A stretch of 64,000 nucleotides of DNA from Pseudomonas sp. GD03944 (lineage in GTDB: Bacteria > Pseudomonadota > Gammaproteobacteria > Pseudomonadales > Pseudomonadaceae): NCBI RefSeq assembly GCF_029839275.1, contig NZ_JAOCAH010000012.1:62001-126000 (forward strand). Reading direction: 5' to 3'. A program made the position numbers and the translations under genes. The notes below the pieces were generated by a model, which saw only the letters and a list, made by a program, of their open reading frames with translations, was not told where the DNA came from and did no database searches. Shown piece by piece: positions 11,293-12,942 of this stretch; the first letter of the stretch is position 1, and each line of letters starts with the position of its first letter.

Positions 11293-11799
11293 ATGGCGAT
11301 CTTAAACATCCTCGAATTTCCCGATCCACGGCTGCGCACCATCGCCAAACCGGTGGATGTGGTCGACGACGAATTGCGTCAGTTGATCGATGACATGTTC
11401 GAAACCATGTATGACGCGCCCGGGATCGGCCTGGCAGCGACCCAGGTCAACGTGCACAAGCGCGTGGTGGTCATGGACCTGTCCGAGGACAAGTCCGAGC
11501 CGCGGGTCTTCATCAACCCCGAGTTCGAGTCGCTGACCGACGAGATGGACCAATACCAGGAAGGCTGCCTGTCCGTGCCGGGGTTCTACGAGAATGTGGA
11601 CCGCCCGCAGAAAGTCAGGATCAAGGCCCTGGATCGGGACGGCAAGCCCTACGAACTGATCGCCGAAGGCCTGCTGGCCGTGTGCATCCAGCACGAGTGC
11701 GATCACCTCAACGGCAAGCTGTTCGTCGATTACCTGTCTAACCTGAAGCGTGATCGCATCAAGAAAAAGCTGGAAAAGCAGCACCGCCAGCGAGCTTGA
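11293..11799 (+). CDS. def: Peptide deformylase
   Basis: A 168-residue iron/zinc hydrolase that removes the formyl group from nascent N-terminal methionine. All three motifs are intact: GIGLAATQV (residues 44-52), EGCLSVPG with metal ligand Cys92, and HECDH with ligands His134 and His138 and catalytic Glu135. There is no recognisable purine-rich ribosome site in the 25 bases before the ATG. It is upstream of fmt, which adds the formyl group, and a long palindromic element separates the two genes. Confidence 0.97.
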
Positions 11800-11815: not shown

Positions 11816-11980
11816 AAAGGCTTGCTCCAGGCTAAGTGAGAACGTCGCGAGCGAAGGTTAGGCAAGGAAAAAACAGGCGAAGAAGCGGAGTGTACGAGTT
11901 GTACATGAGCATTCTGAGCCTGTTTTTGACGCGGCATAACCGAGCGCAGCAGTTCTCACTTAGCCTGAAGGCAAGCCTTT
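11816..11980. repeat. Long nested palindromic element between def and fmt
   Basis: The 198-bp def-fmt gap is almost filled by one imperfect palindrome. The outer arms are 11816-11843 (AAAGGCTTGC then CAGGCTAAGTGAGAAC) and 11952-11980 (the complement, with 2-3 mismatched bases). Inside are GGTTA (11856-11860)/TAACC (11937-11941), AAAAACAGGC (11869-11878)/GCCTGTTTTT (11918-11927) and a central TGTAC-gagtt-GTACA (11891-11905). Transcribed, it could fold into a rod-like hairpin of about 165 nt. It resembles an intergenic repeat I recall as recurrent in Pseudomonas genomes; no protein is encoded. It could be a non-autonomous mobile palindrome or a structured RNA. Confidence 0.75.
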
Positions 11981-11997
11981 TTCTTTAGCGAGTCCCC

Positions 11998-12942
11998 ATG
12001 ACCGAAGCACTGCGCATCGTCTTCGCCGGCACCCCCGAGTTCGCCGCCGAGCACCTCAAGGCCCTGCTCGACACGCCCCACCAGATCATCGCCGTGTACA
12101 GCCAGCCGGATCGCCCGGCCGGTCGTGGACAGAAGCTCACGCCCAGCCCGGTGAAGCAGCTCGCCCTGGAGCACGGCATCGCCGTGTACCAGCCGCAGAC
12201 CCTGCGCGACCCGGAGGCCCAGGCCGAGCTGGCGGCGCTCGCACCGGACCTCATGGTGGTGGTGGCCTACGGCCTGATCCTGCCGCAGGTGGTGCTCGAC
12301 ACCCCGCGCCTGGGCTGCATCAACAGTCATGCTTCGCTGCTGCCGCGCTGGCGCGGTGCGGCGCCGATCCAGCGCGCGGTGGAAGCCGGCGATGCCGAGA
12401 GCGGCGTGACCGTGATGCAGATGGAAGCCGGCCTGGACACCGGGCCGATGCTGCTCAAGGTCAGCACCCCGATCAGCGCGGACGACACCGGCGGCAGCCT
12501 GCACGATCGCCTGGCCGGTCTCGGCCCCCAAGCGGTGATCGAGGCGATCGCCGGCCTGGCCGCCGGGACCCTGGTGGGCGAGGTGCAGGACGATGCCCTC
12601 GCCACCTACGCGCACAAGCTGAACAAGGACGAAGCCCGTCTCGACTGGACTCGCCCGGCCGCGGAGCTGGAGCGCCTGGTTCGCGCCTTCCACCCCTGGC
12701 CGATCTGCCACAGCACCCTGAGCGGCGAAGCCCTCAAGGTGCATGCCGCCACGCTGGGCGAAGGCCGGGGCACGCCGGGCACCGTGCTCGCCGCCGACAA
12801 GACCGGCCTTACCGTGGCCTGCGGCGAAGGTGCATTGCGCCTGACCCGCCTGCAGCTGCCCGGCGGCAAGGCCCTGAACTTCAGCGACCTGTACAACAGC
12901 CGCCGCGAGCAGTTCGCCACCGGCCTGGTGCTGGGCCAGTGA
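11998..12942 (+). CDS. fmt: Methionyl-tRNA formyltransferase
   Basis: A 314-residue cytosolic enzyme that formylates initiator Met-tRNA with 10-formyl-tetrahydrofolate. The N-terminal formyltransferase domain has the conserved [20 protein letters not shown] segment, containing the Asn-x-His and SLLP active-site loop, and the later Asp region ([11 protein letters not shown]). A C-terminal beta-barrel binds tRNA. Its stop overlaps the rsmB start by 4 bases, implying translational coupling. Def, Fmt and RsmB form the common bacterial def-fmt-rsmB group. Confidence 0.97.

What the first reader, a model, noticed from the sequence alone, without database searches (positions are those of the whole stretch)
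11816..11980. 165-bp nested palindrome filling the def-fmt gap
The outer arms pair over about 28 bp, with three inner complementary blocks and a central TGTAC/GTACA hairpin. The paired blocks differ by compensating or minor changes, as expected of a conserved structure. It separates the genes that add and remove the formyl group, so RNA-level control of their ratio is conceivable; a mobile palindromic element is the alternative.
Basis: partly seen in the sequence, partly recalled or inferred. Interest (0 to 1): 0.6.

Follow-up and report, generated by a model that had tools for sequence, protein, structure and literature searches.

The report
Mobile palindrome inside def gene's terminator
A 140-base non-coding mobile element has inserted into the loop of the transcription stop signal after the def gene, and its central hairpin turns out to be shared by mobile repeats across many bacterial phyla, apparently including the classic ERIC and Correia repeats.

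Summary
The palindrome is real (11816-11980; -91.8 kcal/mol, z = -9) but is two things nested. The outer 10 bp (AAAGGCTTGC/GCAAGCCTTT plus T-tract) are def's ordinary intrinsic terminator; most relatives have it bare. Its loop holds a 140-bp MITE (11828-11967, CAGGCTAAG...CTTAGCCTG). About 18 copies lie in this genome and 42-83 in some relatives. Its ends resemble those of a 1.6-kb IS1182-family insertion sequence in other Pseudomonas; 17 of 19 copies of that IS sit in terminator hairpins, and 18 of 19 carry a 3-5-bp duplication of loop bases. At def-fmt the MITE is patchy (5 of 30 genomes).

Unexpected: the inner ~90 bp (CAAGGC-stem-AGCGSAGTNTAC-loop-GTANATGAGCA-stem'-AACGC) recurs with strongly covarying stems in MITEs with quite different termini and target duplications, across Pseudomonadota, Bacteroidota and Bacillota (30% of 200 sampled genomes of the phylum). 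A model built without ERIC or Correia elements finds, in 90 kb holding both, only ERIC and Correia elements. Rfam's 'sRNA' sX9 looks like half of one copy. So well-known bacterial MITEs appear to share one core under exchangeable ends; the core's function is unproven.

The parts
11293..11799 (+). def, peptide deformylase gene upstream
   Evidence: ORF with HECDHLNG motif
11816..11825 (+). left arm of def's intrinsic terminator stem, AAAGGCTTGC
   Evidence: same stem, uninterrupted, in most congeners; inverted repeat I4
11971..11985 (+). right arm of the terminator stem GCAAGCCTTT and T-tract
11828..11967 (.). 140-bp MITE, CAGGCTAAG...CTTAGCCTG
   Evidence: boundaries from bare sites and from the 139-140-bp size of other copies
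11828..11843 (+). left terminal inverted repeat CAGGCTAAGTGAGAAC
   Evidence: 13 of 16 bases as in the IS1182-family IS end CAGGCTGTGTGAAAAC
11952..11967 (-). right terminal inverted repeat, exact reverse complement of the left one
11836..11961 (+). covarying region matched by model R1 (134 bits; the only match in the window)
11884..11911 (+). central hairpin AGCGGAGTGTAC-GAGTT-GTACATGAGCA, the most widely conserved motif
11863..11867 (+). left conserved landmark CAAGG
11928..11932 (+). right conserved landmark GACGC (AACGC in most copies)
11998..12942 (+). fmt, methionyl-tRNA formyltransferase gene downstream
   Evidence: orthologues in 99 of 99 congeners

Best explanation
It is a 140-bp non-autonomous transposable element (MITE) that landed in the loop of def's intrinsic terminator. 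Its ends resemble those of an IS1182-family insertion sequence, whose transposase most likely moved it in trans; that family is known to aim at hairpins. The relatives' IS copies show the mode directly: insertion into the 3-6-nt loop of a terminator, with duplication of 4-5 loop bases, leaving both stem arms on the outside. Stem, element ends and core thus add up to one nested 165-bp palindrome. SHOWN: multicopy dispersed unit; bare sites in relatives; similar ends; the IS's terminator-loop habit; conserved covarying core. INFERRED: that an IS1182 transposase moved this copy (this genome now has none); that the pairing is kept at DNA level; that any effect on def or fmt is incidental. The inner core belongs to a far wider class of bacterial MITEs with different ends, apparently including ERIC and Correia, which suggests that core and ends are exchanged between elements.
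For: Copies in own genome and relatives. Bare terminator at def-fmt in most congeners, element in five, always inside the same stem; patchy on the def+fmt tree. Constant 139-140-bp size, CAG...CTG ends. Autonomous 1.6-kb IS with such ends and an IS1182-family transposase; 18 of 19 copies with 3-5-bp duplication and 17 of 19 in a restored terminator stem of 8-16 bp. Other MITE copies in terminator stems, e.g. L011 GACGAAGCCGGC and L053. Literature: IS1272/TnSha1 of the IS1182 family target terminator hairpins (PMC4923244, PMC5678879).
Against: The window copy has no clear target duplication (TC on the left, AAG on the right). Its ends differ from the IS ends at 3 of 16 positions. No IS1182 transposase gene is left in this genome. 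Not all MITE copies with such ends lie in terminators. The known IS1272 does not duplicate its target, unlike the IS here.
Confidence: 0.92

Rival explanations
1. A conserved cis-acting RNA (attenuator, RNase III site or processed small RNA) controls the def:fmt ratio.
For: Very stable fold, strong covariation, lies between the two genes; related repeats (Correia, ERIC) affect mRNA processing and stability according to reviews; sX9 is transcribed in Xanthomonas.
Against: Absent at this site in 25 of 30 congeners; about 18 copies elsewhere in the same genome; no consistent strand bias of G.T over A.C mismatches, as selection on one RNA strand would give.
Confidence: 0.04
2. The complementarity of the arms is kept mainly by a mutational process (template switching within the hairpin during replication), not by selection on any function.
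For: Arms of orthologous def-fmt copies changed on both sides together (CAGGCTAAGTGAGAAC in G000, CAGGTCGCATGGAAAC in G012/G085); no consistent G.T bias.
Against: Unpaired bases (CAAGGC/AACGC, GGAG/TGA) are conserved across phyla although they do not pair, which correction alone would not keep.
Confidence: 0.4
3. The terminator simply grew: an over-long native terminator or REP-type palindrome that arose in place, without transposition.
For: Outer stem is the native terminator and pairing runs on into the element.
Against: Constant 140-bp unit with the same ends and core at unrelated loci; bare sites with 4-nt loops.
Confidence: 0.02

Closest known systems
IS1182-family insertion sequences (IS1272, TnSha1) and MITEs derived from them
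   Same: Ends similar to the IS1182-family IS found here; insertion in terminator hairpins without sequence preference (PMC4923244, PMC5678879)
   Different: No transposase, 140 bp; the IS1182 relatives here duplicate the 4-5-bp loop, whereas IS1272 is reported to cut bluntly or replace the hairpin without duplication
Correia/NEMIS elements of Neisseria
   Same: MITE; landmarks ACAAGGC...CGCAG..GTAC-loop-GTAC...AACGC[C/T]GTA in the same order; found by models R1 and R2
   Different: Ends TATAGTGGATTAAC, TA duplication, 106-158 bp, IHF site in the long form; different stems
ERIC (IRU) elements of enterobacteria
   Same: MITE with a long stem-loop; GAG-NTTAC-loop-GTAAN-TGA centre between AAGGC and AACGC; found by model R2
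   Different: 127 bp, 7-bp ends and TA duplication according to a review; similarity is weak outside the landmarks
Rfam sX9 (RF02228, Xanthomonas sRNA)
   Same: Its 76 nt align end to end with half of the element on the minus strand, from the centre outward
   Different: Score 26.4 bits, below the gathering score of 44; described as an sRNA, not as a repeat
MITEPsy1 of Pseudomonas syringae
   Same: Small Pseudomonas MITE with CTAG/YTAA duplication like sister subtypes here; shown to transpose in vivo; its authors noted similar sequences widely (PMC3189936)
   Different: 100 bp, ends GGAAGGTCTGAAAAAGCC; its core was not compared here

Membership tests
MITE (non-autonomous inverted-repeat element) | short (50-500 bp), terminal inverted repeats, no transposase gene | tested here: met
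   140 bp, 16-bp perfect ends; too short to hold a transposase gene
MITE (non-autonomous inverted-repeat element) | multiple dispersed copies with constant boundaries | tested here: met
   18 core copies in own genome; 139-140 bp in most CAG...CTG copies
MITE (non-autonomous inverted-repeat element) | sites without the element in relatives | tested here: met
   bare terminators at def-fmt
MITE (non-autonomous inverted-repeat element) | target-site duplication at this copy | tested here: not met
   TC / AAG flanks; present in sister copies such as CTAG, TTAA, TACC; loss by mutation is likely, and duplication is not universal in MITEs
IS1182-derived MITE | ends shared with an autonomous IS1182 element | tested here: met
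   13 of 16 bases; other copies of the same subtype match the IS end fully
IS1182-derived MITE | insertion in hairpin or terminator loops | tested here: met
   this copy and the IS copies; not all MITE copies
IS1182-derived MITE | mobilised by the IS1182 transposase | not testable with these tools
   no transposase gene left in this genome
Correia or ERIC element proper | family-specific ends and TA target duplication | tested here: not met
   ends CAGG...CCTG in a terminator loop; only the core is shared
sX9 RNA family (Rfam RF02228) | score at or above the family's gathering score | tested here: not met
   26.4 of 44 bits
REP/REPIN (RAYT-associated) | 20-60-nt hairpin with GTAG or CGTC tag at one foot | tested here: not met
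   140-bp unit beginning CAGG; direct reading

The most novel reading that the evidence does not exclude
Many bacterial MITEs that are treated as unrelated families (ERIC, Correia/NEMIS, sX9-type repeats, and several Pseudomonas, Bacteroidota and Clostridia repeats) are one superfamily: a single structured core of about 70-90 bp, with conserved unpaired bases and freely covarying stems, that has repeatedly acquired the ends of different transposase families (IS1182 type, CTAG/YTAR type, TA type) and spread across phyla. The conserved internal loops would then be the recognition site of a widely conserved host or replication factor acting on the hairpin.
Probability: 0.5. Interest if true: 0.85.

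Novelty: new variant of a known kind. Interest (0 to 1): 0.6.

Why it matters
Locally it explains a striking structure as an insertion into a terminator, not a regulator of formylation. More broadly, it shows a MITE and its probable parent IS using terminator loops as a landing site, with the loop duplicated. It also suggests that some of the oldest known bacterial repeats (ERIC, used for strain typing; Correia, which affects neisserial gene expression) share one core with an 'sRNA' in Rfam and with repeats in Bacteroidota and Clostridia. That would turn a list of separate repeat families into one testable question: what recognises the core, and how does it change ends?

Tried and rejected
Rfam at gathering thresholds: no match in the window; permissive: sX9 is the only match below E = 1. 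Phages and E. coli genomes searched with the full element: none; plasmids: 6 partial hits. Literature text search for the core sequence: none; searches for a reported link between ERIC and Correia cores found none in the held library, though subscription papers are missing. R1 alone did not find ERIC; R2, built from cross-phylum copies, did. A model from the full 99-row alignment was too slow to calibrate. G.T/A.C asymmetry as a test of RNA selection: inconsistent between the two sets, so not used as positive evidence. An exact ERIC pattern in 143 genomes of the class: none. Considered, not tested: AAGCGG in the core resembles a primosome-assembly (PriA n') site; recalled from memory only.

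Full report
OBSERVATION. The gap between def (stop 11797-11799) and fmt (ATG 11998) holds nested inverted repeats exactly where stated. The + strand folds to -91.8 kcal/mol, 9 standard deviations below shuffles; the - strand is 6.8 below. No Rfam family reaches its threshold anywhere in the window.

COPIES. The sequence recurs: 10 BLAST matches in the own genome (one is the element itself, one is it read backwards) and matches in 28 of 57 genomes searched. A covariance model (R1) built from 32 copies finds 18 in the own genome and 83, 71, 69, 55 and 42 in five congeners (lower bounds, because only 150 candidates per genome are scored). In the copies inspected the inner part is recognisable, while the outer arms differ between copies but stay largely self-complementary.

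BARE SITES. I extracted the def-fmt gap from 30 congeners. Most hold only a canonical intrinsic terminator, AAAGGCTTGC-loop-GCAAGCCTTTTTCTTTT. In the window and in G012, G075, G081 and G085 the same stem is split at its loop by the element. Occupancy is scattered over the def+fmt tree (5 changes, at least 3 forced), so insertions were repeated, lost, or transferred. The arms of G000/G075/G081 and of G012/G085 differ by paired changes.

UNIT AND PARTNER. The unit is 139-140 bp from CAG to CTG in most copies of this type; in the window it is 11828-11967. A search for the end motif found pairs of ends about 1.6 kb apart in G012, G018 and G085, and related ones in G081. They enclose a 470-485-aa transposase; the two tested belong to the IS1182 family (NF033551, 418 and 474 bits, cut-off 270). 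Of 19 IS copies examined, 18 have a 3-5-bp duplication, and removing IS plus duplication restores a terminator-like hairpin with an 8-16-bp stem in 17, for example GAAAACGGCGCC(ctcg)GGCGCCGTTTTC. The own genome has no IS1182 gene at present, so its copies are presumably relics, moved by an element since lost or acquired by transfer. IS1272, of the same family, is documented to aim at hairpins and terminators (PMC4923244, PMC5678879), though without duplication.

THE CORE. Of 33 consensus pairs, 22 show changes on both sides. The core is not confined to IS1182-type ends. Copies with ends TAGGGTCTGTACGAAAAG (CTAG duplication), GAACCTGTTCACGATCTCGCGAG, GAGGGTGTTTACAAGATAGG and CAGGCCGTTGAAAAATG (CTAG or related duplication) have the same centre. 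By my estimate from the number of fixed bases, about one chance match is expected for the whole collection. The flanks, which were not part of the pattern, show complementary stems of quite different sequence and usually CAAGGC and AACGC on either side. R1 aligns 99 matches in these loci; 92.9% of cells pair, covariation 0.451 against 0.123 for shuffles and 0.03-0.05 for slid partners (the alignment is fitted to the model, which favours pairing). In an even sample of the phylum, 60 of 200 genomes and 31 of 109 genera carry it at E below 1e-5.

LINK TO NAMED REPEATS. I recalled that Correia and ERIC repeats contain similar pieces and tested this. R1 finds the short Correia form at E 0.0012 in 90 kb. 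R2, built from 23 cross-phylum copies without Correia or ERIC sequences, gives exactly five hits at E below 10 in the same 90 kb: three in Neisseria-type Correia elements (6e-5, 0.23, 0.35) and both E. coli ERIC loci (0.009, 0.05); ERIC again scores with filters off. The landmark order AAGGC - GAGNTTAC/GTAANTGA - AACGC occurs in both ERIC loci and 0 times in 200 Mb of random sequence; that pattern was set with ERIC in view, so it is supporting, not blind. The two ERIC loci are the same place in two strains, so they count as one. Rfam's sX9 aligns end to end with half of the element, below its threshold; a review lists sX9 among the most frequent bacterial sRNAs by annotation (PMC9029176), as a repeat would be. 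Reviews that I read treat ERIC and Correia as separate families; I found no report of a shared core, but the library lacks most subscription papers.

WHAT KEEPS THE STRUCTURE. A symmetric self-alignment of 157 copies gives 316 G.T and 386 A.C mismatches, with the two sets of copies disagreeing. Selection on one RNA strand is therefore not shown. DNA-level causes (hairpin template switching, cruciform or single-strand recognition) remain open. Conserved unpaired bases argue that some factor reads the hairpin.

VERDICT. A MITE in a terminator loop: high confidence. Its mobilisation by an IS1182 transposase: well supported, not demonstrated. A role in formylation control: unsupported. A superfamily with a shared core and exchangeable ends: supported by the model hits and by wide covariation, with ERIC the weakest link; it deserves a dedicated study.

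Noticed in passing
L042, L055, L060, L065, L069 (def-fmt gaps of other congeners): The gap is occupied by different, unrelated inserts in other species, including REP-like GTAGGAGCG... palindromes in L060 and L069; the def terminator seems to be a repeated landing site.
   Followed up: no
L246, L250, L251, L279, L283, L287, L297 (inside the core): Core copies with extra palindrome-like segments inserted in one or both inner stems (gtaacagcc...ggctgg; gcgttagccgcaagcggc), i.e. further nesting within the element.
   Followed up: no
L237, L247, L253 (Bacteroidota, Clostridia and an unclassified Pseudomonadota): Head-to-tail double copies of the core about 116-170 bp apart.
   Followed up: no
G085 and G012, IS copies L080-L097: At least two IS1182 subtypes (1596 and 1607 bp) with nearly the same ends coexist in both genomes, some with interrupted reading frames.
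   Followed up: partly
L012 2483-2599 (-): An ErsA/Pseudomon-1 sRNA gene lies about 0.9 kb from a copy of the element in G018.
   Followed up: no
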